From: Absidia repens
Taxonomy: Eukaryota; Mucoromycota; Mucoromycetes; Mucorales; Cunninghamellaceae
Assembly: GCA_002105175.1 (NCBI GenBank)
Contig: MCGE01000056.1
Location: 1-64,000, forward strand
Direction: 5' to 3'
Length of the DNA: 64,000 nucleotides
This document shows, one piece after another, positions 1 to 64,000 of this stretch; within the stretch, counting starts at the first letter, position 1; each line of letters begins with the position of its first letter. The notes beneath the pieces were generated by a model that saw only the letters and a program-made list of their open reading frames with translations, was not told where the DNA came from and made no database searches. The position numbers and the translations under genes are program-made.

Positions 1-110
1 TATGAAGAATTAATAATGAAAAGAGAGAAAAGAAAAAGAAAGAAAGCGAAACAAAAATAGGGCGTAAATAAATATTTCACGTGTGCGGAATTTGAAAAAG
101 GTGAAAACTA
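1..110 (-). repeat. Composite intergenic repeat, truncated copy a
   Basis: A purine-rich stretch runs into a CACGTG core at about 78–83, followed by a GCGG-AATTTGAAA motif. This is the same terminal layout seen in the repeat copies at about 19.8, 41.3, 47.5 and 50.9 kb. Only the CACGTG end lies inside the window; the rest is off the left edge. Boundaries are approximate. Confidence 0.6.
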
Positions 111-1053
111 CCCATTTTAGTGAATAGTATGAGCACACAACGTCATTAACATGCCGGCTTCCATCTCATAACAGTTCCCCTCACCATTCAATATCAGTTG
201 TATTGTGACACCCTCTTCTTTTTACATTAATCCCCATCAGTCAACGATGACGCTCCCTTCTTTTTTTTTTTTTTTTTTTTTTTTTACAGTAGCCAACAAT
301 GGCCAGCAGCGCCAAATTTGTCGCTGTCTCTTGTTTCTACAAAAATCACCGTCATTCAACATATGCAGCAAGTTGGTTCTAATATCATGGTCTTTTTTTC
401 CCCATCAAACATGGGGCAATTTGGCCTAGTTTAGGTTACCTCCTTCAATGTGTTGTAGAATAGATTGTCACTCACCGTATCATAGCTCATTGCTTACCTT
501 TTAACTCTAAATAAAATATGTTTTATCATTTTTGCAGGTTCTTAGCAGATCCATTCCATCATAAATACAACATATATAACGAACCTGTACTGCGTGTAGT
601 ACAAGTGGAATGTTGACAAGGCCTACTTACCTTCAGTTAATAAAATCCAGTCATTCTTTTTGAAAGTGTGAGAAAGTTTATATCCCCCTTTTGCTTTCGA
701 ACCTTGTTTAACTATTGGATGCTCGACAAGCAACGATTATTATTTAAATGACACTTTATTATATAGTAAATATAAATCACATAAACAAATAGGATAGAGA
801 AAAATCTACAATAAAATTAAAAAAAAGGTATGTATGCTAAAAGCCTTCAATTTAACGAAACAAATAAGGATGAAAAAAAAAAATAGACAAAACGAAGCGA
901 AGTGCAATTCATAACTAGGCTGAAATAAAAAAGGGATTGAATCTATGGATGATTATGATGCTATGTAATAGCTAATAATTTGATGAATGGAATAGAGTAA
1001 ACATGCAATAAAGGTTGTAATGATAGGACGATGATTATGTTGATGACTTTGTG
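111..1053. other. Intergenic, no gene seen
   Basis: No convincing coding sequence. A run of about 30 T lies at about 256–285. The stretch immediately downstream of the transporter stop (about 780–1050) is A-rich and is probably its 3' untranslated region. Confidence 0.5.
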
Positions 1054-1926
1054 TTAACGATGAATAGTAACATGGCCAACATCAAATTCCTGAGCCTCCT
1101 TTTCAGAACAAGCGGAAGAATTCAGACTTTGATTATTTGTAGGTAAAACTTGTTGTTCGACTTTTTTCCCATCGAGTACCCATTTTTTCAAAAGCTCGAC
1201 TTCAATATTTCCGAGAATAAGTTGTTCAACATGGTAAAGTAAAAGTGGGGTGGACAAAACACCGACTGTGCCTGGATCACCGTTTTGGTATAAAACATTG
1301 ATCAGGGGAACACCCATCGCCACTGTTTTTGTAGCTCCACAATACTATATAAATAAATCAAAAATTGAGTACGATGACAAAACGTTATATTATGACGAAA
1401 GACGATCACTTACCATAACAGCCACAGTGTCCTCCCTAGAATAGCGTAATTGCTTGACCCAATTAGGAGTCGAAATAAACCGAGGTAAAGGCAAACGAGC
1501 AAGAACCAGGCAAGTCAAAGAAAAAGAAATATAAAAGATGGCATTGATCACGGCAATGATAACAATATCTTTGGCTGTTACAGCGGAAAAGGAACCAGAA
1601 TACACAGCGTCCGAAAACACTGACCACACCATAATCAAAAGAGCGACACTGGACACATCAGATAAACGGCACTTTTCTTTAATTTTGGCCACTTTATCGG
1701 TAAATACCCATTGAATAGCTTGACCAACAATTAATGGAGCCAATACAGTCAATCCCAACTGTTTAAGCACTGACCCAAAATCAACCACACCGCCTACTTG
1801 ACTACCACTTTCATCTTCAGGGGTGGCATCTAAAAGCGGACCTTGGAATGTAGAGACTAGTGCAGGAGAGACAAAGATACCTGAATTGAATTAAATAAAA
1901 TGATTAGATTCGATCACCTTGATCCC

Positions 1927-1965
<39 letters not shown>

Positions 1966-2057
1966 GAGAACATTTCCGAGAGCAGCATTCATTAAGGCTG
2001 AGATGATAAAAGAAGTAAAGATTAGCAATCAAGTTCGAATGTAATGAGTAGGTGAGA

Positions 2058-2088
<31 letters not shown>

Positions 2089-2978
2089 AGGACACTTACC
2101 GGAAGCTTCATTTCCTTTTGCATTTTTAGTCATGACCACATTTGAGGAGACGGTAGTCGGAGTACTTGCAGCAATAACTACACCAATCAAAAGTAATGAA
2201 CTCATTGGGACTTGCGCCTTGAATAATAACAGGACGAGACCGAAAACGAAGAATGGGATCAACACCAGATTGATGACTTGGATTAGAAAATGTAATCGTA
2301 TACGTAAAATTGTTTGTGCCAAGATTTTCGTTCGCTAAAAGTTCAAAAGATGATTTAATGACATGGAAAGATACGGGATGTCAAGTTGTTATTTTTTTTT
2401 TTTTTTTTTTTTTTTACCAATGATAATCCAGATATTAAAAAGATCACAATAACCGCTCCTATAAAAAAAATCATGCAAAAAGTCGGTATTTGAATTCTAG
2501 TCTATAGCAGCATCAACCATTATTTGGGTGCCTTACCCCATTTTATAGACCATTCAGCGCGAATATAGCCACCTTTTCTTGCAACATCAGGGAATTGACT
2601 GGCCAACAAAATTACAAAAGCCAGTCCAAGTAAAAACCAGTATTTTTTCAGTAGTGCACGTGCTTTGATACCCAGTCGAGATTGCCAACTTTTTTTACTA
2701 CTATCACCACTATTATTATCATGTTGATGAGGCTCATTTTGTTTTTGTGATGCAATGGTAATGGATTTTTCAGAAAAGGATAGTGACCTTTTTTTCCTTG
2801 AATCATCATCAGTATCACTTGGATGATCATGGTGTGAAGGAGGGATGGTGGCCTCACTAGCAAACGATGTGTTAGATTGTAGTTTAGATTCGTTCATCAT
2901 TAATTTCAATAAACTAAACAACAAAGAAGGAGAAGAAGAAGTCCTTTGTGAATGGAAGTGAGCCTTTTTTTTAAACAT
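1054..2978 (-). CDS. RCH1: SLC10A7/Rch1-type solute carrier (bile acid:sodium symporter-like)
   Basis: Six exons on the minus strand: 2978–2537, 2458–2418, 2334–2100, 1997–1965, 1880–1414 and 1344–1054. They sum to 503 codons, giving 502 residues. The N-terminus (about 110 residues) is polar and low in complexity; after it come roughly ten hydrophobic segments. The segment around the fifth junction reads CGATKTVAMGVPLIN, typical of the SBF-like/SLC10A7 family. Fungal members (Candida Rch1) sit in the plasma membrane and damp calcium influx; the human homolog also affects Ca2+ homeostasis and glycosylation. The calcium role here is inferred from family only. Introns 2 to 4 contain long T runs just after the donor or inside the intron. 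The start at 2978 is the first ATG of an open frame that joins in phase to every later exon. Confidence 0.88.
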
Positions 2979-4862
2979 TCAAGGAAAAAAGAAGGAGAGG
3001 CTAAAAGATGTGAGATAAAAAAAAAAAAAAAAGGTTTTCGTAAGGGGAGCACAAAAAAAGGAGTGTAAGGGGGTGAAAAGAAAAAGAGATAGAGAGAGAT
3101 AGAGAGAGAAAAGAGAGAAAATCCACTCGTCAAGAGTAACAGTTTCCTTCAAAAGCAATAAAGAAAGAAAAAGAAAAAAATAAAAAGAAGCATGAAACAG
3201 AAATGAGGCGCTTTTAGTCTTGATGGATTTTCAAGAAAGGAGTACGATAGATTATCATAGGGGGAGGGAGGGACGGAAGTGATTTGATGAGAACAAAGTT
3301 TGATAAGGAGATTTCTCTTTACTTGTATACATCAAAGGGGAAGGGGGAAGGGAGAGTATAAAATTTTTATCAACTCCAAAAAAAAAAAAAAAATGAAGAA
3401 TGATTCCTATAGTATCATAATAATTCCTTATTTTCTAGTTTCTCCATTAATATGGAGCACTCATGTATTGTACATAGAGCGCACCACAGTAAAATATTGT
3501 ATTGCTCATTACGGGGATGCTTTTCTATAGAATAATGGATATTATATTTTTTTTTCTTGTTCATTTCCAAAACGGTCTTCCAACCAAAAATAATTATGCA
3601 TTGGTTATTATTGCCTGCTTGAATTCAAATACCGATAGAGTATGTATAAATGATAAAGGTCTCCTTTTTACACATACGATCATCCATATGGACTTTAACT
3701 GTCAATTATACGATATCCTTTTTTTTCTTATTTATTTCAGAAGGTCGAGTAAAAATAAAGAAATTCTGTCAGCATTTGATCACTATATTCTCATTAATAA
3801 CGCATGGTGGCATTTTCCATAACTCTTTAATCGAAAATTCTTCCTTTGATCGATCATCATCACTATAACGTCAATTTAACAGAACCGCCTCACAGAAAAA
3901 AAAAAGAAGAAGAATACCAGAACCGATCGACAAGACATCTGCTTCTAAATTTAGGTCTTCTGAATTGTTGGCATTGACCACACCCCACAAAATAAATCAA
4001 CATATTTCAATGGCCGCCGTCTTTGATTCATAATTTGATTACAGTACTATCGTACCAGTGTTACATTTTTAAAATAGTCTTGTGACAAAGATATCATAGT
4101 AGTAGTGTAATCTTGGTTTTTTTTTTTTATCCAATTTGTCATGCCGCGGTATGCTACATTTGACAATATATAATCATTTCCGCCCACTTGATTCGCAAAA
4201 GAAAACACATGGATGATCCCTCTTTTTTTTTTTTTTTTGTGCATTTGGCTTCATGCGATCAATGTTTCTTTTTTTTTTTTTTTTTTTTTTTCTGGAATAG
4301 GCGTTTTTTATGTTTGATAACAAACACAACACCAGTGCAAAAGCAAAAGGAATATCAAACAGCCTAGATAAATCTCCAACTCCGATAGCCCCCCAGAGCT
4401 TACCTCCTTTTCTTTAATAGCAATTGATGATCGCTAACCTTATGATTGTGGCGCGTGATTCTCCTCCAATACTGATTAGATCTCATTTTCCCAAAAGTAA
4501 AAGTACTACCGTCAAAGGAGGAGAAAAAAAAAAAAACGTGCGATTTGTGATATGATGATTAATATTTCTGTTCATTCTCCCTCGATTCAACTTTTGTACC
4601 GGCTCTTGGGTAAACCCTTTGTCTATGTTTTACTATGTATCCGGTATTTGTAATGCCCCTATCTTCATGTCATCCTCAGCAAGAAACCTAAATATAGGTC
4701 TCATGGACAATGTTACGGATATTATTTACTTGGCAATAAAAATTTTAACCACGTAATACGATTTTGAACGTGCAAAGGAAAAGGGTTACGTGGTGGGTTG
4801 TCGGTTTTGAATGAGGGATCGAAAAATGGCAATGACAAGACGTACGTTGACAATACCCCCCC
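2979..4862. other. Intergenic, no gene seen
   Basis: About 1.9 kb upstream of the transporter gene. It is A/T-rich with purine-rich tracts near 3040–3180 and T runs near 4219–4236 and 4267–4290. Short open frames here have no family signature and biased, run-derived composition. Confidence 0.5.
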
Positions 4863-5760
4863 CATTCAAATCCCGCCCACGTGAATGTTTATTTACTCCC
4901 AATTTTTTTTATTTTATTTTTTCGCTCTTTCTTCTTTCATTCGTCACAGTTGTGACATCTATGGGGTTATGGTGGACTTGGGCTAGTGTCAGGATTAGTT
5001 GAGAAGCGTTTTCAGAATAGCGATTACAATATGCATGAGGAAACCCTTTCATTTTGGATTCAGGATTTAGAACTACCAATCGTTCGTTGTCTTTTTGGAG
5101 TCCCTCATTAGTTTAGTTTAGTCTTTAGTTTGTACCTACTTTTAAATAAAATATCTCTCTTTTTACTTGCTTCAGTTAAAAATGTCCAATTAGTCTCTCT
5201 CATGTCTTGTGTAGTAGATCCCTTTTTTATTGTTGGGCCTGCCATCAGATAGTACTGATCGTTGTTGTGCTTCAATAACAATTGTCCCGTTAATTATTCT
5301 CAAGTTTGGTATTCTACCGGACAACATAATATATCCCTTATAAAAATCAATCGTTCCTTTAGACTAGCCTTGACCGTTCTTAAAATCTCACATCAGTCAA
5401 TAGATCCTTTCGTTAAATCTCATACTACAGTGAACCCCTAGTCTTTTCTTTAGCTTTAGTACCTATCAATGCACCCTAGTCTTTTCTTTAGCTTTATTAT
5501 TGATCAATACACCATAGTCTTTTCTTTAGCTTTGGTATCCAACAATACATTTCGAATAAAATATTCTTTTTATTAACAATTCTCTGACCCATCATATAGT
5601 AAAAAAAAAAAAAAAAAAGTCATTATTATAGCTATTTTGTGAGTGTTGTACCAGACACTCACTCTTTATTTCACCCATTCTTAAACACCCCCTTGCAACC
5701 CCGCCCCCCGAACCACTTGACAGTTTTAGATCCCTTATTAACAAACTAGCTATATTCCCG
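4863..5760 (+). repeat. Composite intergenic repeat, copy b
   Basis: Starts at ATTCAAATCCCGCCCACGTG and runs through the family's conserved block (ATGCATGAGGAAACCCTTTC, then TTTTGGATTCAGGATTTAG). It then shows modules that each carry an AATAAA-like signal (5144–5150, about 5552). The block at about 5548–5600 matches in reverse the 46.86–46.90 kb part of copy g. The right end is fuzzy. No open frame of note. Confidence 0.7.
5436..5549 (+). repeat. Three tandem 38-bp units inside repeat copy b
   Basis: The string CTAGTCTTTTCTTTAGCTTT, or a close variant, begins at 5438, 5476 and 5514, an exact 38-bp period, with diverging tails between units. I did not see this array in the other copies of the composite repeat. 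Confidence 0.8.
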
Positions 5761-6386
5761 GTCGATCAATCATATCTGAAATATGTTGTGCATGTATGGT
5801 CGTCAGGACTATAGAAAATTTTGCACATCTTTCCATGATATGATACATAGATTATCAATGTAGGAACCGCTTGAGGTCCCAGTGACTATGTTGGACAGTG
5901 TCACACCGCTTGATAGGAAACACAGCTGTATTCACGTTTTTAATGTATCATTGGTAACAATCAATCTGGACCATGTCTCCGGGCAACCCTTCACGAGACA
6001 GGACATACCTGAATATATTCAGCTCATTATTCAGTTTACGTTCTTGCGCAACTGCATCCTATTCCTTTTGCCCCTAGTTTTCCAATACTGTATGTATTTC
6101 CCACCGCCATTGACATACGTATTTGCTCTGTCTTATCTTAATGTTGAATTGCCTCCCTTTTTTTCCAAATTCATTCAAAGACAACCTTGTTGATTTTATT
6201 CATATATTGTTTTTATAAAAAAATAAAAATAAAAAAAAAAGCGAGAGAGTAAGAGATATGAGGGAATATAAACTAAATGAGAATGATTTGTACAGTACAC
6301 TAATGTAAATATGTGAGGTAAAATGAGAAGGGGGAGGGGAGACTGATTTGACTATATATATTAACAACTAAGCACAGAGCGACGTC
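5761..6386. other. Intergenic, no confident gene
   Basis: Holds an open frame at 5882–6193 with a hydrophobic, low-signal protein that resembles nothing I recognise. The last 200 bases before 6387 are A-rich and fit the 3' region of the BRPF-like gene. Confidence 0.4.
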
Positions 6387-6565
6387 CTAGGCTTTTTGGG
6401 ATTTCTTTTTCAATTTGCAGACATAATCATAGGCCGCTTTCACTTCCGCGTATCTTGACTTCTTCTTCTTTTGAGGCATTCTGGCATGCGCCAGCATGAC
6501 TGTGTCGTTTTCAGAGTTCCCAAATTTGCCAATATCCGTTTGCTTGATCCATCCCCTACCATAAA

Positions 6566-6601
<36 letters not shown>

Positions 6602-13571: not shown

Positions 13572-14325
13572 GAATTCAATAAATCAAGTGAGAAACAAAA
13601 TCAATAGCAATCTAAAACTCTCCCAGCAACAATCATTACGATACCAAGGGGGGAAAAATGCCGCGGATTAGACTTGGGCTACCATATCACATAATTTTCG
13701 GAGAAAAAATAAAGCATTGCCGGTGAGATGAATGGATATATAAAATGATAGAAGTAAAATTCATAATATATAAATTATTGCATCATAGCTTATAGCACCA
13801 ATATTATCTATACAATATTTAAAAATGAAAAAGGGCCTTTATAAACACACCTGAATCAAACAAAAAACATTTTAGCAAACAAATAAAGAGATCATTCACT
13901 AAATATTAGCGTCCATCAGCCGACAACCTTTAATTTTTTTTTAAAAAAAAAAGGTTAAAAACAGGCCCACTAGAAAGACTTATTTTTAAAATTTATCTAC
14001 TATCATGAGTTCTCTATTTTTATTATAGGAGTCAATAAACATAACGTAATATAAATCATGTGGATATCAACTCTTGAGTAACAAGCTATACTACAGTGTG
14101 TGATAAAATAGAGCAGGGAAGCGCGAAGGACCGTAACAATCCTTAGAAAAGAACTACCTTGCAACCGATGCTGTACGGTGGCAATTATTCCAAAAAAAAA
14201 AAAAAAACAATTTTGAATGCCGTTGATTGATGTAATAAAAATCAAGACCCTATGTTAAATTATGGAGGTATCTGACATGAGCTTACCAAATCCTCCAAGA
14301 GACAAAAAAAAAAAAATAAGATACA
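13572..14325. other. Intergenic, no gene seen
   Basis: Upstream region of the DOC-like gene. AT-rich, with poly(A) runs near 13950 and 14192–14206. No coding signal. Confidence 0.45.
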
Positions 14326-15010
14326 TTTTAGATCCCGCCCACGTGGAATTTTTTTTTTATTTTCCCACTTCCCCACGCTTTTTTTTTTCTCCTCTTCCTT
14401 TCATTTTCTTTTTCTTTTTTCACCATTCACTTCTTTGAGGTTGCGGTGACCTTAGATTAGTATCAGGTCTAGTTTAGTCGGGGTTTCAGCTCAGGGATTA
14501 CAAGATGCATGGGGAAATCCTTTCATTTTGGATTCAGGATTTAGGACCCACCATTAGCTAGGTTTTTGGAACCATCATTACCTTAGTTTAGTCTTGGTAG
14601 TTTTAGTTTGTCCATAGTTTGTATCTTTATCTGAATAAAAGATGTCTCTTTTTACTTATCTCAATGAAAAACGTTTCATTTGTCTTTATCGTTTCTTGTG
14701 CGATAGATCCCTTTTTTTACCATCGTCATTTTAGTTGAGTGCTGCTGACCGTTGTTATGCTTCAATAAAAGATATGTTTCTAGTCATTCTGATGTTTTGT
14801 ACAGTCATATTAGCTCCTCTTTTTACAATTGTACCTTTAGTTTTGCGCGGTATATCTTCCAGATCTCCTATTAATCTCCCTCAAAATTGTCCCACCATTA
14901 AATTCTTTGAGTGGTGACGTTCGCAGTTCAATCTTATGCTTCAATAAAATATATACAATATATACAGTCTTTCTTCAATCATTAACCTTTACTATCAGGT
15001 CTATCGGATA
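14326..15010 (+). repeat. Composite intergenic repeat, copy c
   Basis: Begins ATTTTAGATCCCGCCCACGTG and continues through GATTACAAGATGCATGGGG, then CATTTTGGATTCAGGATTTA. Three successive modules each carry a Gaa/CaaTAAAA signal, near 14633, 14764 and 14942. Same orientation as copy b and opposite to all others in the window. Confidence 0.72.
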
Positions 15011-15166
15011 TTGAACAATCTTTCGTGTATGCCAAAATATGAATTAAATAATATGCCAAATATGACGATGATTTCGGTGATGTTTAAAGGAGAGTTTCTA
15101 AATAGCGAATATCATATCGTTAGTTGGCGTTTCTTGTGAGCATGCTTCAAAGCATTACCAACATGA

Positions 15167-15211
<45 letters not shown>

Positions 15212-15789
15212 ATGGTCAATAATAGAACATTGGAATGAAGAAACTGTTCAATTAATATGCCCGTAGGATTATTTTTATCGCTTTGATAATCAAATATGAT
15301 ATAAAAGACGTAACAGCTTCAGAAGGAGCGTACAGAACAGGATGGATTTCATATTCCCTCACCACTGTTATATATTTGATGGTGAGCTTTTTTTTCCCAC
15401 TTTGATTAAAAATACATACATAAATAAAGGCAAAGATATCAAGGGCCAAAAAAAAAAAAAGGTAAAAGCAAATGAGTGATAAAAATAAATGATCTTTATT
15501 CAAAATAAAAAACACTATGCAAAATGGAAACGGATATCATTATAATTTGTACAACTACATAAAAATCCATTTCAAATGCTTCTGATACGCTGAGTAATGT
15601 AAGTTGCTCTGCAAGAGGGCCGCACACCGGGAAGGCGACAAGAGTGGCTATGAATTGTAAATAAAAATAGATGTCATCTGCCCACTTTTTATTAAAAACA
15701 CATGAATATAGAAATAAAAAGGAATCAAACTATATACTAGATGCTATTACTAATATTTATGCTAATAAAAACAGGGAAAGCTCCATGTT
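15011..15789. other. Intergenic with a 37-base poly(A) run
   Basis: A pure A run covers about 15171–15207, among the longest homopolymers in the window. No coding signal; the right part is likely the 3' region of the helicase gene. Confidence 0.5.
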
Positions 15790-18438: not shown

Positions 18439-18955
18439 GTTAAAAAAGCAAGGAGCAAAAAAAAAAAAAAAAAAAAAAAAAGTGAAGTTGAACCAGAATC
18501 TCCACCTACCCACCAGGAGCGGAGATGGAAAGAATCTAGCAACTGCTGCATGGGGACAATTTGGATTGGTTTGCACCATCCACTTAATTTTATCACCCAC
18601 TCGGTTTTTTGATAGAATTAGACGTCCCTTCCATTTTGCACCGTAATGGCCCGTTGAGGCTCGACTGGATTTAGTCCTGTTCGGCAAATACGCCCCTCCC
18701 AGCTAGATACATACAGTCCGTCGGGTCTAAAGACTACGCTGACACCACTGTCCTGTCAGATTGGTATGGATGGAAAGCAGGAACTATAATGACACTTCAT
18801 ATATTGAACTACCAATCAGGCGATTGGTGAGAAGTGGCTCATAGCGGGATAAAGACAGTTTGATGTATTAGTATGCATAATATAGTAACTAATGAAAAGA
18901 AAAAAAAAAGCTCCATTTATTTTTTTTTAATTATGACGGTGTGTTAACCAGAAAA
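18439..18955. other. Helicase upstream region
   Basis: Contains an A run at about 18458–18481 directly upstream of the helicase start codon. No independent gene seen. Confidence 0.45.
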
Positions 18956-19822
18956 AAGGAGGAAAAGCTCTATAGTATAGCAATAACTACACGCATAACA
19001 TGTTCTAGGGTTATTTAATAAGAGAGTGACATTCGATATCAAGTGACTTTATAATGTCTACCAGCATCCTAGGATTCTGGGGGAGAGGAGTTAGAAAACA
19101 GCTGTATGATAGGACACTTACAAAAGAATGACAATATTGGTGTTGTTACTATCTAATGGAACAGAGAATGGTTAATAAAAAAAAAGGATATATTTTATTT
19201 CAAGCATATTGATAAATACTAAACTAAAAATATGGAGTACAAGGGATTTATTGTAGGTAGCATGAAGGGGCTAGAGTGAGATCTGAAGAACGACAACCAT
19301 TAATCTAAAAGCCCGACAGCAAAAATGGGAGTTAATACATCATAGAGGACATGAGGCAGATTAAAGAAACAACTGTTATTGAAACATAACAATGGTTAAC
19401 CTAATTTAAAAAGGGTAATGGTTGCAAAAAAAAAAAAAATAGATCTATTGCACAAGACATGAGTGAGACTAATGGGACATTTTCATTGAAGCAGGTAAAA
19501 GAAGACATATTTTATTCAAATGTAGATACAAACAATGACAAACTAATACCAAACTAAGCTAATGAAGACTTCAAAAAGCCAACTAAAGGTTACAAATCCT
19601 GAATTCAAAATGAAAGGGCTTCCCGATGCATCTTGTAATCCCTTAGCTGAAAACACTTCTAAACTAGACCTGGCACTAATCTAAACCCATCACAACCTCA
19701 ATGAAGTTAAATGGTGGTAAAGAAAAAAATAAAATGAGAAGAAAGTGGTGAAAATAAAAAAATAAAAATGAGGGAAGTGGGAATAAAAATTCCACGTGGG
19801 CGGGATTTGAAATATTTTCTGT
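18956..19822 (-). repeat. Composite intergenic repeat, copy d
   Basis: Reads in plus as AAAGCTCTATAGTATAGC, then the module with GGGGGAGAGGAGTTAGAAAACAG, several TATTTTATT…GAAGCATA modules (19190, 19380, 19510), then AATCCTGAATTCAAAATGAA and finally TCCACGTGGGCGGGATTTGA at 19791–19810. Nearly full length, with the modules in the same order as copies g, h and i. Confidence 0.75.
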
Positions 19823-28819: not shown

Positions 28820-29564
28820 GTTGTCAGAATGGGACGAAGTAATTAATTTATAAAAAAAGATCAAGAAAAAAAAAAATCAAAAAAAACTAGAGCTCTGAAT
28901 AAAAAGGAAATTGTCAAAGCCACAGGTGAAAGCGGCGTTTGAAATAAATAAAGTAGTGGCATGAAGTTTAAAAAGTAAATATGGCAGAAAGGAGCCAAGT
29001 AGACCCCAAATGGCATGATCAAATATTATATAAGATAAAATGATGAAGAATATAATGTACATATGTATTATTGCATTATTGATGCTCCACATACAGAACC
29101 ATCCCTCATATGTTATGAGACAAAATTTCTCGCTAAAATTGGACCCCTGGATCCCTTATTCAACCAAATATTCCTTAATAAACCGTGTGCAGTAGGGAAC
29201 CTAATTAACGACATTCATACCTGGAATAACAATACCTTTCTGAAAAGCATTGATTGCTGGCTCTGAGATATCGTAATTCGAATAATGATTTTTTTGACCT
29301 CCTAGGCGTCATACATTTTGGGGGAGGTTGGATGCAAATTTGGGTATGCTCCCCTTTCTATAGATGAATGATAACGCATTGTGCCATTACTATAAAAGAT
29401 AGGATATACTAAAAAGCGCACTTCAGTTTGAGTCCAGCAATCTGGTACTAGTATGTGGAGTGGTAGACGGCTAAATGTAAACAAAAAACCCCGACCTTTC
29501 AGTGACCTTTCAAGTGGTAAATGGAGGTTCAGTAGGGTCAGCTCTAATCAATAGAGGTGTTAGT
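28820..29564. other. Intergenic, no gene seen
   Basis: Upstream region of the Mrt4 gene. No coding signal; a G-rich patch near 29325. Confidence 0.4.
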
Positions 29565-29985
29565 AGTAAAAAAAAAAAAAAAAAAAGATCCATTACAAAT
29601 GACATAAAAGAGACTAACGGGACATTTTTCATTGAAGCTGGTAAAAGAGACATATTTTATTCAGATGTAGATATTAATGATGGACAAATTAAAACTAATC
29701 GAAACTAATGTCTTTAATAAAACCTATTAATGATGGTTCCAAATCCTGAATCCAAAATGAAAGGGTTTCTCCATGCATCTTGTAATCCCTAATTTGAAAA
29801 CCCTTGTAAACTAGTCCTGACACTAATATGAGGTTACCATAACCTCATAGAGATTAAAATCGTGAAGAAAAAAAGAAGAAGAAAACTGGAAGTGAAAAGA
29901 AAAGAGAGACAAAAAAAAAAAAAAAAAAAATACGGCAGTAAAGAATAATATCCACGTGGGCGGAATTTAAAATATCTTACTGTGG
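29565..29985 (-). repeat. Composite intergenic repeat, short copy e
   Basis: After an A run (about 29568–29586) it carries only the CACGTG-proximal part: ACATTTTTCATTGAAGC, the CATATTTTATTCAGATGTAG module, AATCCTGAATCCAAAATGAA and TCCACGTGGGCGGAATTTAA at 29951–29970. The distal modules seen in copies d, f and g are missing. Confidence 0.72.
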
Positions 29986-40279: not shown

Positions 40280-41330
40280 AATGTAGTGCTGGTGACACAG
40301 TCTTGGTTGATTGATATGCCTGGTATAGCAGGAATAGGGTTTTATTCATATTACGTGGCATAGAACTGCCAACTACTCACTGGTGCTCGCGAGGGAAAAT
40401 TTTTATGGTGGATGAGTCAGTAGGCAGTGAAAAATAATCTGTGGCGACATATGTTAACGGCATGGTCTAGGTTCTGATAGGCGGAATAGTTAAATGTTTA
40501 CATTTGAATATTGGATGACCTAGGATTCACCGGTCAATCACTAGAATTCTAAAGGGAGTTACATTACTAAGCTAGGATGCAAGTGCTAGATAGAACAACT
40601 CACAAAATAACCGCGCTAACAAATTTGTTCAATATATACTGTGTCAGTGAATGGTTCAAAAAGACATATTTTATTGAAAAAGCTAATAGTCAATAGTAAT
40701 CGAAATGGACGATGCTAACAAGGAGTCCATTACACAAGGCATGAGGGTGAGGGGAGAGGAAACTGAAGAATAGGCCGGATTGAACAGTGCATGATACTAG
40801 TCTGAAGCGGAAATGCTTAAAAATAAGTATAAAAAAAGAGCCATTGTACTGTACACAGCGTTAAAGAGGGTAAAGGTTGTCATAGTAAAAAGAGATGTAT
40901 TGTAGAAGACATGAGAGAAACAATTTACTATAGCATGTAAAAGAGATCTCTTATACAAAACATGAGAGAGACTAATGAAACAATTTTAATTGAGGCATGT
41001 AAAAAATGACATAATTTATTGAGATGTTGAGATGTTGATACAAACTATGAACAAAACTAAAATTAAACTAAGCTAATGGAGACTCCAAAAAGCCAACTAA
41101 TGGTGGTCCAAAATCCTGAATCCAAACCGAAAGGGTTTCCCCATGCATCTTGTAATCCCTTTTCTGAAAACCCTTTTAAACTAATCCTGATACTAATCTA
41201 AGTCCACCATAACCTCATAGGAACCACAATTGTGAAGAAGGGAGGAAGGGAAAAAGAAAGAGAGACCGTATAAATAAAATTGGGAGTAAATAAAAATCCA
41301 CGTGGGCTGGATTTGAAATAGGGTTTCGTC
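40280..41330 (-). repeat. Composite intergenic repeat, long copy f
   Basis: From about GACACAGTCTTGGTTGATTG (40299) through GGTCTAGG, the TATTTTATTGAAAAAGC module (40669), duplicated ATGAGAGAGACTAATGAAAC modules near 40910 and 40965, then AATCCTGAATCCAAACCGAA and TCCACGTGGGCTGGATTTGA at 41298–41317. One of the longest copies, with an extra internal module compared with g and i. Confidence 0.72.
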
Positions 41331-42793
41331 ATTTTCTTTGGGGGCTACAAAAAAGGAAGCTATTCTCTTTTTATTTTATTTTTATTTTTACAAGGACCAA
41401 CATCCTACAACAACATTGTCTACATGGTGGTTAATTTCTCATGATGATAACCACTTTTATTTAATATTAACAATCTGGTTGTTCTTTTCTCTTGGTATCT
41501 TTGCAGAGAAGGTAGATCAATTCAGTCTAGTTTAACTAACCCCTTCATGGTACGTAAAGCACAGTAGTTTGTCTCTTATCGTAGGATAGTTTCCCCTCAT
41601 AAATTTGACGAGATTATTTGATGATATTTTTATTCTAAAGCAAGATACCCTCAATGGTACTCACATTTAGACTTGTATCATATGTAATATTATCATCAGA
41701 TTAGCTGAGTTTAGTTGCCACACCTCTGAATAAATTATATTCTGTCATTTAGTTTTTGCATCGTCTCTGTCTTGCCAAATAGGAATATCCATACTGTACT
41801 GTATAGTGCTTGTGCGTGTAGAAAAAAGAGCTAATGTGTGGTGTGTGCAAAAAAAAAAAAAGGTCTAGGTATGACATGAGGCAGCAACGATCAACGTCGT
41901 GTTCAGTGCTCTATCTGCTGTATGTTCTGCGCTTCTAAAAATATGGATCACAGGAATTTTAATTCTCAAAGCACTCTTCCTATTCTGAGTAGATGTTCTG
42001 GTGTTGCAATTCCTCGACCTTTCAGCCAAAACCGAACAGCTTCAAATGCCTACACAAAGCGTTGTTTTTTTAATAGAAACAGAAAAACCCCCAGTCAGTT
42101 ACCTTCGGCCCTTTTCACCTTCATTATCATATCGTGTTGTTTGAAGTGCTATTGTCAAGTAAAATATATATACTACAAGTGAAAAATATCCTATTGAAGA
42201 CAGACGACGGATTTTTTTTATTGTAGAAAAAACATAATAATTTTATACTAGTCCAAGTAAAGAGGACAAGTTATTCTACAGTAAGTTGACAAACTGTCAT
42301 ATATTGAAAGAAGAGGAAGGTAAGCTGGTTTCCAGCTATTGAACAAAACTATTCTACTGTGAAGGGTTGTGCCTCATTTTGTTGAGTCCAAGACTATCAC
42401 TTAACCGTTGTTGAAGGGTGTTGGGCACTGTCATGCGACGAGGGAGCCAACTATATTTGCGGCAGTTACTCCTGCTGATCATTTTGTATTAATAAATTAG
42501 CATTTGATAGATTTCATTTAAAAGGAGGAGGTCTTTGGAAATGGGTTTTGTTTTGCCAGAAGTCCTGTCGCTGCGCAGCATTTCGTTTCAAAGGGGCATT
42601 CTATTTCTCATTTATCAAAAAAAGTGACCATCGGAGAACCAATAACCAGGAGCGAAACTTGATTTTTTTTTTTTGAGGGAGACAGCCAATCAAATTCATA
42701 TCAGTGTACAAAAAAAAAAAAAAAAGTGCCCTATCCCTATTTTTTTTTTAGGATATAAAATTTCTTAACACTTTATTTTTTTTTTAATTGGGA
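41331..42793. other. Intergenic, no confident gene
   Basis: About 1.4 kb upstream of the DnaJ gene. T/A runs near 41850, 42663 and 42709. Short open frames lack family signatures. Confidence 0.45.
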
Positions 42794-46349: not shown

Positions 46350-46639
46350 TTCTCTTCCATCATTCTCACTCACTCTCCATTATTCATTTAATATTATTGC
46401 TCCTTAGTTATTAGTGTTTGTACTTCTTTTTTTTTTCATCCACAGCCTCAATAGTTTATGTACCTTATATTATGATTAAAAAATAAAAAACCAACTTGGT
46501 CAATTTATTTTATTTTTAATAAGAGTGGTAAAAATTTTATAGAAGGAGAGGGGTTGCGACGGAGACAAAAAAAAAAAAAAACGATTGATGGGCATGGTAA
46601 AGATGTCATTGAAAAGAGTACAAGTTTTTTTTTTCAGAA
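46350..46639. other. 3' region of the chitin deacetylase gene
   Basis: AATAAA near 46487. The sequence to about 46555 is repeated in altered form at about 49.4–49.7 kb. Confidence 0.6.
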
Positions 46640-47540
46640 ATCAGGGAAAAATGCTCTGTAATATAGCGGTTCCTGTACGTATTGGTGCAGTCTAGGTTCA
46701 CTAATACAATTGGTCAATTATGAATAATATTACTGTTGATCAGTCGCTGGGACTCTAGGGGAAAGTCATTATTGTGGGAAGAGAGCTAGAAAGCAGATGT
46801 TGGCTGGGGTGCTCATGGAAACAGCTACAATAATGATATCATTTACAAGACGATGGGTCAAATGATGGTTAATAAGATGGACATTTTATTGAAGCATATT
46901 GGCGGATACTAAAACTAAAGACGAGGGGTTCATTCCAATAAGAGAAGGATCTATTGGATGAAGCATGAGGGAGGCTAATGTGAGTTTTGAAGAATGGTCA
47001 ACACTAATCTAAGGTGTCTCAATAAAATGGAGAATAATATGCTATACAAGAAATGAAAGACAGTAAAAGGAGATATTTTATTGAAACATAACAAACAACG
47101 CACAATATAAATCAAACGCGGTGCATGTGATAAAAAGGGATCTATTGCACAAGACATGAAAAAGTCTAGTGGGGCGATTATTATTAAAGCAAGTGAACAA
47201 AGACGCATTTTATTCAGTTGTATATAACAAACTATGTACAAATTAACACTAAACTGAGCTAATGAAGACTTCAGAAAGTCGATCAATGGTGATCCGGAAT
47301 CCAAAATGGAAGGGTTTCCCCATGCATCTTATAATCCCTGAGCTGAAAACACTTCTAAACTAGTCCTGACACTATTCTGAGTCCAACATAACACTGTAAA
47401 AGTCGGATGGTGAAGAAACAAAAAAAAAAAAAAAAAAAAAAAGTTGAGAAAAAAGGAAAGGAACAGAAAGGAAAAGAGGGTGGGAGAAAATGAGGTAAAT
47501 AAAATGCTTCACGTGGGCGGAATTTGAAATGTTTTCTGTG
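46640..47540 (-). repeat. Composite intergenic repeat, copy g
   Basis: Starts GGAAAAATGCTCTGTAATAT and proceeds through GTCTAGGTTCACTAATAC, CAGTCGCTGGGACTCTAGGG, TATTTTATTGAAACATAAC and AATCCAAAATGGAAGGGTTT to TTCACGTGGGCGGAATTTGA at about 47508–47527. Very similar in order to copy i, with which it shares the flanking chitin deacetylase 3' sequence. Confidence 0.77.
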
Positions 47541-48099
47541 AGTGAAGATTGCGTTGGGATATTTTTTACCATCACCGTGGTGCCAAAAAAAAAAAAAAAG
47601 GAACCCCTCATTTTACGTTTCCCTTCTTTTTTATGCCCATATAACAAGATTGACATGGCATTTCTCTTCTCATGATATAAGCATTCACCATTCAGCAATG
47701 GTCGCATGGTAGCTCCCTCTTCTTTTATAATAACGTTCTCCTTCAGCAACGCTAGCACCTTGGTACCCTCGTCTGTTGGACGCAGCTTCCCCACCCCACA
47801 CGCATACACATCAGTACTCAGCCGTGGCTCACACCTGTCATGAAAACAGTACACATTATGGTGGGTTTTCTCTCATTACTCAACCCTCATGGTTCCTATG
47901 AACTTCCCTACTATTGGAATAGTTTTGCTTCGCACAGTAGAATAACTCATCCGCTCTCCTTCACTGCAGAATATTTTGTCATTCATCGTATAGTTAATTA
48001 TTCTTTTAGTTTACCTTATGCGCTATTTATCATGAAATAATAATAAAAATGTATATGATTTCAATGAATATCTTAAGTTGTTTATTACGTTCAGTAACA
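47541..48099. other. Intergenic within the repeat cluster
   Basis: A minus-strand open frame (47854 down to 47372) has a partly natural-looking N-terminal half but no family I recognise and an ending inside poly(T). I do not call it a gene. Confidence 0.4.
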
Positions 48100-49170
48100 G
48101 TTACGGTATACGTCCAGCTGTGGCGAACACAGTCTTAATTGATTGATTCTAAATGGTAGATTGAGAATGGCACAACCTTTCATATTGTGGTCAGTCGCTG
48201 GCATTATTCAATTAGGAGGAAGGGGGCGTTACTTTCTGACGGTACGTCGTTAGTTCATTAACATAATGGTGGTACAGATGGCGTGTGCTACCCAGAAATT
48301 AGGAGAAAATGCTCTACAGTAATATGTTGTGCAGAACCAGCTACACTCACGGATATGGTCTAGATTTCTTAGTATGATTGATTGAACAGGCATAGCGCCA
48401 CATTTTAGATCAAGTAACCCAAAAGTAGTAATCTGTCGCTGGGGGGGGGGAGGAACCAGTCATAGTAAATGAATTAGAAAACATTCAATTGTTAGTACTT
48501 TCACGAAACAGCTACAATATTGAGTTAGTTTACTACACAACAACTCAGTAGATGGGACAGAAAGACATGGTTTATTTGTAGAAATGCGATAAATACTAAA
48601 CTAATGGCGTGGAGTTCATTGTTACAAGGAATCTGATGGAGATAGCAAGAGTAAAACTAGTAAGAAAGTTGTAGATACTCAAAACTAATCTAATGGGACA
48701 GTTTCAAAAAGGGATTTGATATACGGTACAAAGCCACGAGAAAAATAGATGGGATATCCTCTGGTAGTATAACAATGATCAACACTAATCTTAAAGGGAG
48801 GCGATAAAAAAGGAATCAGCTGTACAAGACATGAAAGAGACTAATGGGACATTTTTCATCGGGGCTAGTAAAAAGAGATATATTTTATTCATACATAGAT
48901 GGAAACTAGGACAAACTAGAATTAAACTAAGCTATTGAAGGCTTCAAAAAGTCAACTAATGGTAGTCCCCAGATCCTGAATCCAAAATGAAAGGGTTTCC
49001 CCATGCATCTTGTTACCCCTGAGCTCAAAACTCTTCTGACCTAGACCTGGCACTAATCCAAGATCATCACAATGCCAAAACGTTGCAATGGTGAAGAAAA
49101 AAGAAGGGAAAAAAAAAGAAGGGAAAAAAAATTCACGTGTACGGGATTTGGAATATTTTCTGGAGTGTCT
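48100..49170 (-). repeat. Composite intergenic repeat, long copy h
   Basis: Begins near GAACACAGTCTTAATTGATT (48126), as in copy f, contains CTCTACAGTAATATG, CTGTCGCTGGGGGGG, the AGACATGGTTTATTTG and GAGATATATTTTATTC modules, AATCCAAAATGAAAGGGTTT, and ends TTCACGTGTACGGGATTTGG at about 49131–49150. Confidence 0.73.
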
Positions 49171-49404: not shown

Positions 49405-49695
49405 AATCGAAAATGCCGCAGGTGTGGCCTCCATTGGAATGTAGGGTTTTGATGCTGCCTCTTCTCTTTCCATTTTCTAGTTAACCTAATGTCCTTTCAT
49501 CCTCTTCAACCCTATTATTCATTAGATATTATTGCTCCATAGTTATCAGCATTAGTATTTGTATTTTTTGTTTTTTTATTCACACTACCAATAGTCTAGT
49601 ATGTACACTAAATTGTGGTTAAAAAATATAAAACCAACTTGTTAATCTATTTTATTTTCAATATAGATGGTAGATTTTGTGAGAAGGTATTATTT
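49405..49695 (+). pseudogene. Duplicated, broken 3' end of the chitin deacetylase gene
   Basis: ATCGAAAATGCCGCAGGTGT and what follows parallels the final codons and 3' untranslated region of the chitin deacetylase gene (from about 46265), including ATTATTGCTCCATAGTTA and AAAACCAACTTG. In the copy the coding part has an early TAG in the GPI-signal region and several substitutions, and no upstream exons accompany it. It is a relic of a segmental duplication, not a gene. Confidence 0.8.
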
Positions 49696-50080
49696 TGCGT
49701 GTGGAGCTCAGGGGGGGTTGAAATTCAACAAAAACTCGGGAAAGAACAAAACGTTAGCGGTAGATGGGCGGGATATGAATATGGTCCTAAAGCAACTGCC
49801 TTCATTCTTCACGTGGATGCGTCTATGGTTTATCATATCTCCCATGACTTTGTGAGAATTTTTTATGATCGACATACAAGTCACGCAGTTGTACTGTATA
49901 ACTTTATACTGTATGTATCACCCACAACAAACAACCTGATTTCCATTACCTATTGCAATGTTTTTTGCATTCCCGGCTGTCCTTAAAGGAAAATGCAGTA
50001 TGCAAGATAGAGCATTCATTGAAAAAAAAAAAAAAAACTCAACGGGCAACCTTTTTTGTAAATATGACAGCGTAGCAGTC
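49696..50080. other. Spacer after the duplicated gene end
   Basis: An open frame here is not coding-like. An A run lies at about 50022–50036, in the position where the original has its own A run (about 46567–46580). Confidence 0.5.
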
Positions 50081-50985
50081 CGAAAGCAGTAGAAAATGCT
50101 CTGTAATATAGAGGTATCTGTACCCATGACGCAATCTAGGTTCATTCATACAATTGGTCAATTATGAATAATGCCATATTTGATATTAAGTGACCTAGAT
50201 TTGTGTATTGCTCACTGGGACTCTTGGTGGAGGGGGGGGAGTAGTCATAGTGGGGATGGGGACTAAAAAACAGATGTATGATGGGACATTCACAATAACA
50301 GTTGAACTAGTGATATCGTTTACTGTACAATAAGTCATAGAATGGTTTATAAAAAAGCATATTTTATTGAAGCATATAGTTAGATACTAAAACCAACAGA
50401 GTGGCGCTCATTGTGACAAGAGATTTAGAGGAGGGATCTATTGGAGGAAACATGAGAAGGTTCTAATGTGAGGTCTGAAAAGTGGTCAGCACTAAACTAA
50501 AAAGATAACTGTAAAAAGGAACCTAGCACTTTGTACAGAACAAGGTATGAGAAATATTGAAATGACATAGTTTAGCAAAGCACAACATCGATCAACATTA
50601 AACTAAAGTGACAATGGTAGAAGAGATTTCCTGTACGAAGACATGAGAGAGGCTGATGAGACATTTTTTATTGAAGTATGTAAAAATAGACATATTTTAT
50701 TCAATAAAGAGACAAGCGAGGAACAAACTGATACTAAACTAAACTAATGAAGAGTCAACTAATGGTGCACTCAGATCCTGAATCCAAAATGAAAGGGTTT
50801 CCCCATGCATGTTGTAATCTCTGAGCTGAAAGCTCTCCTAAACTAGACCTGATACTAATCTAAGTCCACCATAACCCCATAGAAGTTGAATAATGAAGAA
50901 AAAAAAAGAAAGAGAGAGCGGAAACAAAAATTGGGAAGAAATACACGTGGACGGGATTTGAAATGTTTTTTTTGTAGTCTTTCGA
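50081..50985 (-). repeat. Composite intergenic repeat, copy i
   Basis: From AGTAGAAAATGCTCTGTAAT through CAATTGGTCAATTATGAATA, which copy g has word for word, CTCACTGGGACTCTTGGTGG, the ATATTTTATTGAAGCATATA module and AATCCAAAATGAAAGGGTTT to ACACGTGGACGGGATTTGAA at about 50942–50961. Closest relative is copy g. Confidence 0.77.
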
Positions 50986-51979
50986 TTGGGTCTCCTCCTC
51001 CACACACAGTTACAATATATTATATTTCTATCTGAATAAAAGTATAATTTTTATCATTTTACTTTTACATTGTCTCCCATACGTTTGATTTATCTTGTCG
51101 TATGAGTATAGTCATATCTGCACCGTGCATATGTTAGTAGAAAAACAAAAGTTGATATATGCATACAAAAAAAGTATTATCATAGGTGCGAGACGAAGTT
51201 CATTAACTGTCATGGCAAGCGCTCGACTGCATGTACAATACCGAGTTTCTAAACACATGGGTGTCGTTACCCCAATCACATGCCGTCGTTCAATTTTTCA
51301 CCTTTACTTCATATTGCGTGGTTGAAGCGATTACTGTCAGTAAGCCCCGTATATTTAACACTTCCGAGAGACCGTCTCTTATGTTTCACGTTCTACATAG
51401 CTGATTTACTAATATATTTCAATAAACCAGTTTTCTATATGGGTTTATCTGAATATCATATTGAGGTGTTTTATCACAGTATATCTTGATAGCTTCTCCC
51501 ACCTTTCCTTCTGTTGCGGCCAAATCCCCCCGCACTTGATTTTTGACCAAACAGGTTGCACCCAAGCATTAGGATGCCCTCTAATCACCTTACTAAAATC
51601 AGTATCTGCATCCGCCATGATCACCCCACACCGTCACCTCTCGATCGTAAGCAGTATTTTATGCAACATGCAACACGTTATCATGTCCTCCACCCCATAT
51701 ACACTTTGTACGCAATATGCTTCAAAGCAAAGATAACCACGAATAAATATCCTGCTCATCATATAAAAAACAAAAATGGAAGCAGAAATAAAGGGTGATA
51801 TTATAATTTTATTGCCAGATATATTCTCTATTCTAAAACTTAAATGTCAAGATAAACTATTCAGCTAGAAAGACTAAGAATATATATATGTAAAAGTAAA
51901 TGCGGGGTAAAAAAAAGTGTACGTTTGTTGTCTAAAGGGGATTTTGGTGAAAAAAAACCAAAAAGGGAAGTATATGTTC
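50986..51979. other. Intergenic, no gene seen
   Basis: About 1 kb. An AATAAAAG at about 51036 follows the repeat. The frames present are short and unremarkable. Confidence 0.45.
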
Positions 51980-55800: not shown

Positions 55801-55834
<34 letters not shown>

Positions 55835-57946: not shown

Positions 57947-58195
57947 CGTCAAGTTTCAAATGATTAAATCAAAGACAAAGAACCAAGATAATGATAACCG
58001 AATAGAAAGAATGAACAAAAAAGAAACAAGAGAAAAAGGGAAATAGAGCCAAACGATTTTTTAGCTTTCAATATAACTCGTGTCACACTGATAGTGAAGA
58101 CATACCATAAACATCATTATAAAATGGGCGGCGTTTGAATCTCGAAAGCGAAAAAAACTAGGAGAGGTATTTTTAGTTTTTTCTACCAGAAAATT
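57947..58195. other. Divergent promoter region
   Basis: Between paralog 1 (minus) and the GPI protein (plus). 331 bases separate the two start codons. Confidence 0.5.
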
Positions 58196-58277
58196 AAAAA
58201 AAAAAATCTTTTTTTTTTTTCTTCTTCTTTTTCTTCTTCTTTTTCTTATAACAACAAATCTTTTTCTCTTTTACACC
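58196..58277 (+). promoter_or_regulatory. T/C-rich leader before the GPI protein gene
   Basis: An almost pure CTT-rich tract ends near the start codon. Similar in kind to the leader at 25818–25896. Confidence 0.4.
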
Positions 58278-61900: not shown

Positions 61901-62864
61901 ATTGTCCTTGATTTACAAAAGTCGTCGAGTAAAATTAGTGTGCAAAAGTGAGGAGGCAAGTATTAAAAGAAATGAAGGAATGTAAAGGGGAGGAGGTGTA
62001 AAAAAAAAAAAAAAAGAGAGGGAAAAGTAAAGAAAGTGAAAAAAAAAGAGCGTAAAGTCAAAAAAAAAAGGGAACATAAAGCGGTGTTTCAAAACTGGAA
62101 GGTGAGAGGAAACTCACATGGAAAAAAAAGGTCCAAATTAAAGTTGAGGTCACTCAAATCTCTTAAAAAGTAAGAGACCAGTCATCGTGCGCTACCAGAA
62201 CTTTAAAAGGAAAGACCCTCTCATTACCCACAAACGAAGATTTTTTATCATCAAATATGGAACAAAATGAATCCAGAGTGGTGGTCATATTGGATGTATG
62301 CATATATACCATATTACTTTTGGTGAATTTATAATAATGAACCAATATGGAATTTTCTCACTTTCATCAGCTACCTTTTTCTGTTTTTTTTTTTGTTTCT
62401 AATAAATATATATTAATTCAATTTATTTCTTGGTTATCTCTCTGTCTCTCTTTGAAGACATCGCAAAAGATGTGGCACAAAACCTACCAGACAAAAAAAA
62501 ACGAGTCTGTGTTTGTTGCCCCGCACTTTCTAATTGGTGGATCTTTAATTTCCAGGTTAAGTTTTGTACCACTTCCTGAGTCTTCGGAAATCCATACCCA
62601 AATATGCCCACGATGATATTACTGCTTAGGTGGACGCTTTATAAAGTATAGTTCTTCCACCCCCGACTAACGGTAGATGAGTTATCATGTCCTTTTGAGT
62701 TTAGAACGAAAAAAAAAGAAAGACATTGACGTTGTGTTGAACACGAGTACGAATTAGAAGACTATCGGTGTACTACGTAGGTAAAAGAGAAACAGGTTTA
62801 TAGATTCAAAGCCATAAGTATTATGAATTAGTTGCATTTGTGGCACAACTTACAGGGGAGGAGG

Positions 62865-62895
<31 letters not shown>

Positions 62896-63689
62896 CCACT
62901 GGGAAATCGAGACAATCGTTTCCAAAAATTGGCCAATTCACACCCGCTATGATGAAAAAAAAAGATTATGCAAGCCAGAAATTAAAATGAACTGCAAGTT
63001 AGGATAGATAGATTTTTTTCATGCATTGCTATTATTATATTTAATATTGTCAAAGTCAGATGTTTGCGAATTTGGAAACTATAAGCCATAAGACAACTTG
63101 ATTTCTCTTGCGTATAACTTCACCTAGATCAAAAAAAAAGTGCGCGGAAATGCAATTTTTCAATTAAAATAATAATAGAAAAAAAAAGGTCCGATACTCA
63201 TAGTGACGATGAAAAGTAAGTCGGGATGGCTCCGCTCGTAACAAAGACGATTTATCAGAAAAGACGGTTGAGGTTGCAGTTCAGCAAAAACGTAAAGTAA
63301 ACCTTCCATTTGCTGCAATTTTTTATATTCAGTTTCAAAACATTTCAACACCTTTTTAAAAAATTAGCCTACTAGGTGCCTGGGTAGGATGGATGGGGGG
63401 GGGAGGGGATGAAATTCGGCAAAGCACTCCGCCAATTGCGTTTTGATGGGCACTGCTTTGATACTCAACTAGCTTCAGTTTGGTCTTCTTGTGATTTTAT
63501 TACACCACACACATATATATAGCTAATGGAGGGTATGCTGGTGGGGCAATTAATATGAACGGTAGAGCAGTAGTAGCGTCATTTTTTTCATATTAATTGA
63601 ACTACAACTATCAACAAATAGATAGGCATCAAGGATGTAGCGCAAGTAATCATAGAAAGCCGAAAATAGTACAAAATCATCTATAACGG
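61901..63689. other. Intergenic, no confident gene
   Basis: About 1.8 kb. (TA)n at 62866–62891. A minus-strand frame at 63351–63160 (KCFETEYKKLQQMEGLLYVF) has natural-looking composition but no partner exons or family match, so it is left uncalled. Confidence 0.4.
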
Positions 63690-64000
63690 TGGATACTCTC
63701 ATAACTGGACCTACACTCATTTATATGATTGATCATGCAGGAATATAGCTATCTGGGATAGGAAGTAATCAAAGTCTGTCAACTCGTTCCTAGATATTTA
63801 GGGAGGGAGGAAAAGTGGTCATAGCGGGTGAATTATATAGCAAGTGTTTGGATAAGCACTCACTAAACAACCCCAATAATAACATTGTCTATGGTCAGAA
63901 GATGGTTGATAAATATATATATATATATATATATATTACTGAAGCATATTGATAGTTACTAAAACTTAAGACGAAGGGTCCATTGTAGCTGGAAGTCTGC
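63690..64000 (-). repeat. Composite intergenic repeat, truncated copy j
   Basis: Carries GGGAGGGAGGAAAAGTGGTC, CACTCACTAAACAACCCC, an (AT)n run at about 63911–63936, GAAGCATATTGATAGTTACT and AAAACTTAAGACGAAGGGTC, matching the distal half of copies d, g and i. The CACGTG end lies beyond the window. Confidence 0.65.

What the first reader, a model, noticed from the sequence alone, without database searches (positions are those of the whole stretch)
1..64000. Dispersed composite non-coding repeat, about ten copies in 64 kb
Copies at about 1–110, 4863–5760, 14326–15010, 18956–19822, 29565–29985, 40280–41330, 46640–47540, 48100–49170, 50081–50985 and 63690–64000 share ordered modules: a CACGTG core in a GC-rich end motif, a TGAATCCAAAATGAAAGGG block next to a CCATGCATCTTGTAAT block, and a series of TATTTTATTGAAGCATA modules. 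All lie between genes and none encodes a protein. Eight have one orientation and two the other. I see no transposase, reverse transcriptase, clear terminal repeats or target duplications, so the class (non-autonomous transposon, solo LTR, or transcribed non-coding unit) is open.
Basis: partly seen in the sequence, partly recalled or inferred. Interest (0 to 1): 0.75.

Follow-up and report, generated by a model that had tools for sequence, protein, structure and literature searches.

The report
Ancient intergenic repeat filling Absidia genome
A mould of the genus Absidia carries roughly four to five thousand old, non-coding copies of one promoter-like DNA unit scattered between its genes, and a short stretch in the middle of nearly every copy examined has changed far less than the rest, as if it still does a job.

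Summary
All ten copies exist (eight minus, two plus) and belong to a genome-wide family in a 47.4-Mb Mucorales genome, an Absidia species by protein identity. I estimate about 4,000-4,700 copies; both arms cover 14% of a 200-kb sample. I found no kept reading frame, Rfam family, tRNA or RNA covariation. Fifty sampled copies average 69% identity, maximum 80%. Their tree is nearly a star, with slight residual structure, so they spread long ago. Yet a 39-base block changed 2-4 times less than the rest of the head, in every base class, in 49 of 50 copies; the CACGTG block is also kept. The middle resembles a fungal Pol II promoter (CACGTG, TATTTA, pyrimidine tract; AATAAA absent from positions 0-250, clustered at 250-350). 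My reading: a long-dead mobile unit of unknown class whose promoter-like core is probably still under local selection. Counts per bin vary less than random, but a hold-out check went against regular spacing. Mobility class, transcription and function remain open.

The parts
3..97 (-). right arm, copy 1 (cut by the contig start)
   Evidence: profile hit E 5e-11; copy not in the profile
76..490 (-). left-arm pieces of copy 1 (76-224, 271-490)
   Evidence: left-arm profile E 2e-8 and 9e-18
4863..6013 (+). right arm, copy 2
   Evidence: E 7e-214; copy is in the profile
4687..4850 (+). outer piece of the left arm of copy 2; most of that arm is missing
   Evidence: E 9e-7
14321..15378 (+). right arm, copy 3
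   Evidence: E 6e-165; copy is in the profile
14034..14346 (+). inner piece of the left arm of copy 3
   Evidence: E 8e-9
18649..19818 (-). right arm, copy 4
   Evidence: E 2e-220; copy is in the profile
29536..29978 (-). right arm, copy 5, head only (tail missing)
   Evidence: E 3e-96, profile 2-417 of 1168; copy not in the profile
40280..41322 (-). right arm, copy 6 (two pieces)
   Evidence: E 1e-124 and 2e-68; copy is in the profile
41296..42313 (-). near-complete left arm of copy 6
   Evidence: E 6e-167, profile 8-1086; copy is in that profile
46562..47535 (-). right arm, copy 7
   Evidence: E 1e-212; copy is in the profile
47508..48012 (-). inner part of the left arm of copy 7
   Evidence: E 5e-28
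48093..49159 (-). right arm, copy 8
   Evidence: E 3e-207; copy is in the profile
49894..50970 (-). right arm, copy 9
   Evidence: E 1e-230; copy is in the profile
51009..51262 (-). left-arm piece of copy 9 (inner part missing)
   Evidence: E 5e-18
63546..64000 (-). tail of copy 10; its head lies outside the window at about 64564
   Evidence: 63546-63989 E 3e-46, and L049 2-564 E 1e-138; copy not in the profile

Best explanation
This is an old interspersed repeat family of an Absidia genome. A unit of about 2 kb with a promoter-like middle and poly(A)-signal-like modules in its arms spread to thousands of intergenic places in an ancient episode and then stopped moving. In most surviving copies the promoter-like middle (the CACGTG block, and a 39-base block that starts about 140 bases downstream of CACGTG) has been kept by selection at the copy's own site. 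I infer that this middle still binds a factor or starts short non-coding transcription, and so acts locally, for example as a boundary or nucleosome-free region between genes. Shown here: dispersal, copy number, near-star tree, block conservation, anatomy. Inferred: that the conservation is selection, that the middle is a working promoter, and the local role. The transposition mechanism is not identified.
For: 20 heads in 20 systematically placed 10-kb loci give about 4,700 copies (95% interval 2,900-7,300); both arms cover 28.4 of 200 kb. Three exact patterns on C1 give 124 plus-strand heads in 2.99 Mb, in the same range. Tree of 50 heads: terminal branches sum to 9.76, internal to 0.75. No pair above 80% among the 50; two copies used as genome-wide queries found no long match above 79% and 84%, 40 candidates scored of 3,030 and 3,750. 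The 39-base block mismatches its majority base at 4.2-8.0% per base class against 12.4-24.9% elsewhere in the head, gaps 0.15% against 1.7%, lower in 49 of 50 copies; the CACGTG block is lower in 28 of 30 copies not chosen by it. Promoter-like order: TATTTA-like motif within 25 nt of the core in 40 of 50 heads, pyrimidine fraction 0.88 after it; AATAAA 0 times in positions 0-250 and 32 times in 250-350 of 30 right arms. A relative of the right arm's AATAAA module lies inverted in the left arm in 8 of 15 copies (E 5e-7 to 0.007), 0 of 75 shuffled.
Against: No expression data and no genome of a related species were at hand, so orthologous copies could not be compared. Uneven mutation rates could mimic constraint. 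The tree is not a perfect star: 11 column pairs with |r|>0.5 against a permuted mean of 3.9 and maximum of 10, and mean r2 0.02005 against a permuted mean of 0.01937 and maximum of 0.02005, so some differences may predate dispersal. AATAAA is not commoner outward than inward over whole arms (3.4 against 3.2 per right arm; 2.2 against 2.7 per left arm). Copy orientation shows no consistent relation to neighbouring open frames (by eye). The hold-out test for even spacing failed. Four of the 20 sampled heads are decayed or partial. GC and AT skew do not flip at the copies (13 copies, p 0.68 and 0.50).
Confidence: 0.48

Rival explanations
1. A plain dead non-autonomous transposon of unknown class. 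All copies decay neutrally, and the block is conserved only because of uneven mutation or because the active lineage was constrained before dispersal.
For: Dispersal to unrelated intergenic sites without regard to gene orientation needs mobility; some copies are truncated or internally deleted; slight association between columns shows that some differences predate dispersal.
Against: With internal branches 0.75 against terminal 9.76 most differences arose after dispersal, so constraint before dispersal should not show as a strong site-specific rate. The rate drop holds in all four base classes and for gaps.
Confidence: 0.29
2. Solo LTRs of an ancient retrotransposon: promoter in U3, AATAAA in R, and the rest U5.
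For: Promoter and poly(A)-signal order fits an LTR; solo LTRs are non-coding and dispersed.
Against: The unit would be an LTR of about 2 kb with a variable left arm. In 13 copies compared, only four short non-collinear matches (48-70 bases) lie beyond -1000. Same-strand neighbours 1-2.5 kb apart have no open frame of 130 codons between them other than two that overlap the copies. No TG or duplication seen by eye at the head boundary, though age makes that weak.
Confidence: 0.09
3. A SINE-like Pol III family, transcribed from an internal promoter.
For: A conserved TAGTTTAGAAG fits the A-box formula and a conserved TTTTT follows about 90 bases later (by eye; the box formula is recalled).
Against: No tRNA, no Rfam family, no good B box by eye; longer than usual SINEs; an upstream TATA-like motif with a pyrimidine tract points to Pol II.
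Confidence: 0.06
4. Replication origins or origin-like sites that spread with the repeat.
For: Counts per bin less variable than random (102 heads in 1.49 Mb: gap CV 0.64, 0 of 5,000 Poisson draws and at most 0.2% of random-intergenic draws as low; 20 loci of 10 kb: variance/mean 0.42, p 0.013); AT-rich TATTTATTTA next to a conserved core.
Against: Nine further heads found later lay closer to known heads than random (median 1.6 against 4.3 kb, P 0.018); plus-strand heads over 2.99 Mb have CV 0.91, P 0.16; one pattern alone gives P 0.035 and another 0.20; no skew flip in 13 copies.
Confidence: 0.06

Closest known systems
Exapted ancient SINE families of vertebrates (MIR/CORE-SINE, AmnSINE1; recalled)
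   Same: Old, high copy, dispersed, with a core block conserved above the rest in many copies.
   Different: Here in a fungus, longer, no tRNA or other known RNA head found, apparent Pol II promoter anatomy, and a kept block in nearly all sampled full-length copies rather than a minority.
Solo LTRs of fungal retrotransposons (recalled)
   Same: Non-coding, dispersed, promoter plus poly(A) signals.
   Different: No sharp outer ends or target duplications seen, a modular left arm, no internal-region partner seen in the loci examined.
Named DNA transposons of Mucorales (Tc1/Mariner and others; PMC7928374, passages read)
   Same: Interspersed repeats of the same order.
   Different: That survey of six Mucoromycotina genomes gives more than 200 copies for its largest group and used library-based masking; this family has thousands of copies, and no transposase or terminal inverted repeat was seen in the loci examined.
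Foldback elements (recalled)
   Same: Modular tandem subunits and an inverted module in the two arms.
   Different: Only about 60 bases are inverted between arms; copies are not palindromic overall.

Membership tests
SINE | head derived from tRNA, 5S or 7SL RNA | tested here: not met
   ARAGORN 0 in the window; Rfam 0 at gathering in the window; one chance-level hit at E 3.9 in one copy, L036
SINE | internal Pol III A and B boxes | tested here: inconclusive
   A-box formula (recalled) fits one conserved stretch, no good B box; by eye
Solo LTR | TG...CA ends and short target duplication | tested here: inconclusive
   head boundary of 30 copies viewed by eye; outer ends fuzzy; at about 20% divergence duplications would be lost
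Solo LTR | full-length relative with the same LTR pair | not tested
   no genome-wide search for reverse transcriptase flanked by heads was run
MITE / TIR transposon | terminal inverted repeats and target duplication | tested here: inconclusive
   within-copy inverted matches found only in a few of 31 stretches, and an inner module is inverted between arms; ends not resolved
Structured non-coding RNA | conserved base pairing with covariation | tested here: not met
   RNAalifold on 50 heads, 6 windows per strand: 0 except one weak hairpin (-1.26; z -4.4 in one window, -1.0 in the overlapping one) that coincides with the conserved block; 628 of 649 cells pair, but shuffled partners give 627.9 and only 1 both-side change occurs
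Protein-coding gene or pseudogene | conserved reading frame | tested here: not met
   a 10-codon frame lies in the block, but four-fold sites in CTT and TCA hardly vary and the frame is not kept beyond it; two overlapping open frames have no Pfam match; arms outside the block not tested for coding
Helitron | TC...CTRR ends and 3' hairpin | not tested
   ends not resolved

The most novel reading that the evidence does not exclude
A fungal genome in which one non-coding repeat has become genome infrastructure: several thousand copies, most of them under selection at their own site for a short core, acting as a local promoter, boundary or origin unit between genes.
Probability: 0.3. Interest if true: 0.8.

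Novelty: new variant of a known kind. Interest (0 to 1): 0.52.

Why it matters
If the block really is held by selection in thousands of dispersed copies, this is a rare case outside vertebrates of a whole repeat family taken into service, in a mould where deletion tests may be feasible. Even without that, about a seventh of the sampled sequence belongs to a family for which my eight paper searches listed no description.

Tried and rejected
Structured RNA: the block can fold into a weak hairpin, but there is no covariation beyond shuffled partners. Known RNA families: none. tRNA: none. Micro-ORF MHGETLSFWI: rejected, because four-fold sites in CTT and TCA hardly vary and the frame breaks after the block. 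Viral collection: 0 exact matches to the 23-base block. Even spacing as a lattice: first looked strong, but the hold-out went the other way, so it is reported only as lower-than-random variance. Replication skew: none in 13 copies. Tail-to-tail dimers: the inverted signal at +600/+1400 came mainly from one locus, L009, where two copies meet tail to tail. Target duplications: none seen by eye at the head side, uninformative at this age. Literature: eight searches (listings and abstract starts seen) named no such family; only PMC7928374 was opened, by passages. Odds of the best explanation went from 0.50 to 0.48 and of the plain-relic rival from 0.27 to 0.29 for the first of these.

Full report
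OBSERVATION. The ten intervals do share sequence far beyond chance. Self-BLAST of the window gives about thirty mutual hits at 74-88% identity. A profile of the right arm finds all ten places, eight on minus and two on plus; it was built from 29 copies, seven of them in the window, so copies 1, 5 and 10 are the independent finds there. Copy 1 is cut by the contig start. Copy 10 continues past the window end, which I confirmed on 1.6 kb fetched beside it. A first, head-only search had found eight full copies plus a weak trace of the first.

ORGANISM AND COPY NUMBER. The window is the start of a 141-kb contig in a 47.4-Mb, 79-contig fungal genome. A DEAH helicase in it is 94% identical to one of Absidia cylindrospora. 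The 31-base inner block occurs 3089 times and the 21-base CACGTG block 2576 times with up to 3 mismatches, reversed controls 0. Twenty 10-kb loci at round coordinates on five contigs hold 20 heads (15 full, 4 decayed or partial, 1 cut by the locus end), or about 4,700 genome-wide (2,900-7,300). Of the 15 full heads, 13 match the 31-base pattern at the same tolerance, which scales 3089 to about 3,560 full-length heads. On C1, three exact patterns together find 124 plus-strand heads in 2.99 Mb, about 3,900 genome-wide if both strands are alike. Both arms cover 14.2% of the 200 kb and 17.4% of the window.

ANATOMY. In the canonical direction the right arm begins ATTTCAAATCCCGCCCACGTG. A TATTTA-like motif follows within 25 bases in 40 of 50 heads, then a pyrimidine tract (mean C+T 0.88), then a conserved stretch of about 200 bases, then AATAAA. 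In 30 right arms AATAAA is absent from 0-250 and occurs 32 times in 250-350. Degenerate modules of about 100 bases, several with TTCAATAAA, carry the arm to about +1,130. A left arm precedes the head in many copies. Its profile, made from 15 copies, matches nine of the 20 sampled heads over nearly all its length and one more in pieces, but those were in the profile; independent support comes from partial left arms at five other window copies and from five genome hits whose distance and strand to a known head could be checked and fit. In 13 copies compared from -2600 to -800, only four short non-collinear matches appear, so the outer end lies near -0.9 to -1.0 kb but is not sharp. The left arm contains an inverted relative of the right arm's AATAAA module in 8 of 15 copies (E 5e-7 to 0.007), with 0 hits in 75 shuffled arms. 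Over whole arms AATAAA is no commoner outward than inward, so only its position supports a termination role.

HISTORY. Fifty heads (8 window, 7 best hits to one copy, 15 from the systematic loci, 20 picked by an exact CACGTG block) average 69% mutual identity, maximum 80%. Their tree has terminal branches summing to 9.76 and internal ones to 0.75. Association between columns is slightly above that of permuted columns (mean r2 0.02005 against mean 0.01937, maximum 0.02005; 11 strongly associated pairs against mean 3.9, maximum 10), and pairwise identity is somewhat more spread than independent columns would give (sd 0.029 against 0.018). So the tree is nearly but not exactly a star. Two whole-genome searches with single copies scored 40 of 3,030 and 40 of 3,750 candidates; the best long matches are 79% and 84%, while short pieces of about 40 bases reach 88-92%. 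So the family spread long ago and shows no sign of recent movement, with only two copies used as genome-wide queries.

CONSTRAINT. The block GATTACAAGATGCATGGGGAAACCCTTTCATTTTGGATT mismatches its majority base in 4.2% (A), 6.7% (C), 8.0% (G) and 6.5% (T) of cases, against 14.3, 24.9, 20.2 and 12.4% elsewhere in the head (CACGTG block and pyrimidine tract left out). Gaps are 0.15% against 1.7%. It is the better-kept part in 49 of 50 copies: 8 of 8 in the window, 7 of 7, 15 of 15 and 19 of 20 in the outside groups. The CACGTG block is better kept in 28 of 30 copies that were not chosen by it. With a near-star tree most of these differences arose after dispersal, which points to selection at individual sites; uneven mutation cannot be excluded. 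The copies used are those that still match the full head.

WHAT IT IS NOT. No Rfam family, no tRNA, no Pfam match in two overlapping open frames, no kept reading frame in the block, and no exact match to the 23-base block in the viral collection. The conserved block can form a weak hairpin (13 pairs, -1.26; z -4.4 in one window and -1.0 in the overlapping one); 628 of 649 cells pair, but shuffling partners gives 627.9 on average and only one both-side change is seen, so there is no covariation.

SPACING. In the first 1.49 Mb of C1, 102 heads have gap CV 0.64, lower than all 5,000 Poisson draws and than all but 0.2% of draws from simulated intergenic slots. With one pattern alone the effect is weak (P 0.035 and 0.20). 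Nine further heads found by a third pattern lay nearer to known heads than random (P 0.018), against the prediction; with them the CV is 0.68 (P 0.0002), and plus-strand heads over 2.99 Mb give CV 0.91 (P 0.16) with variance/mean 0.58-0.68. I conclude that counts are less variable than random but not lattice-like; real gene positions were not modelled.

READING. The best-supported account is an ancient interspersed family of unidentified transposition class whose promoter-like core is probably retained for local function. The anatomy suggests Pol II initiation, but no transcript was seen. A plain relic with uneven mutation is the main rival. Papers: eight searches listed nothing that names this family. 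[quoted passage not shown]

Noticed in passing
window 46268-46546 and 49408-49687: About 280 bases outside the repeat are 76% alike, and a genome search with this stretch found only these two places for it; a local duplication probably carried copies 7 and 9.
   Followed up: partly
L009 2-670 (+) and 564-1650 (-): Two copies meet tail to tail and their tail matches overlap by about 100 bases.
   Followed up: partly
window 5436-5549: A short tandem duplication (38-base offset, 86%) inside the tail of copy 2.
   Followed up: no
conserved block of many copies, e.g. about window 5031-5060: A 10-codon open frame reading MHGETLSFWI; judged to be chance.
   Followed up: yes
conserved block, any head: The block coincides with a weak 13-pair hairpin without covariation.
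   Followed up: yes
immediately upstream of heads at window 49159, 29978, L005 and L018: A further related stretch of about 45 bases just before the head in some copies only, variably kept.
   Followed up: no
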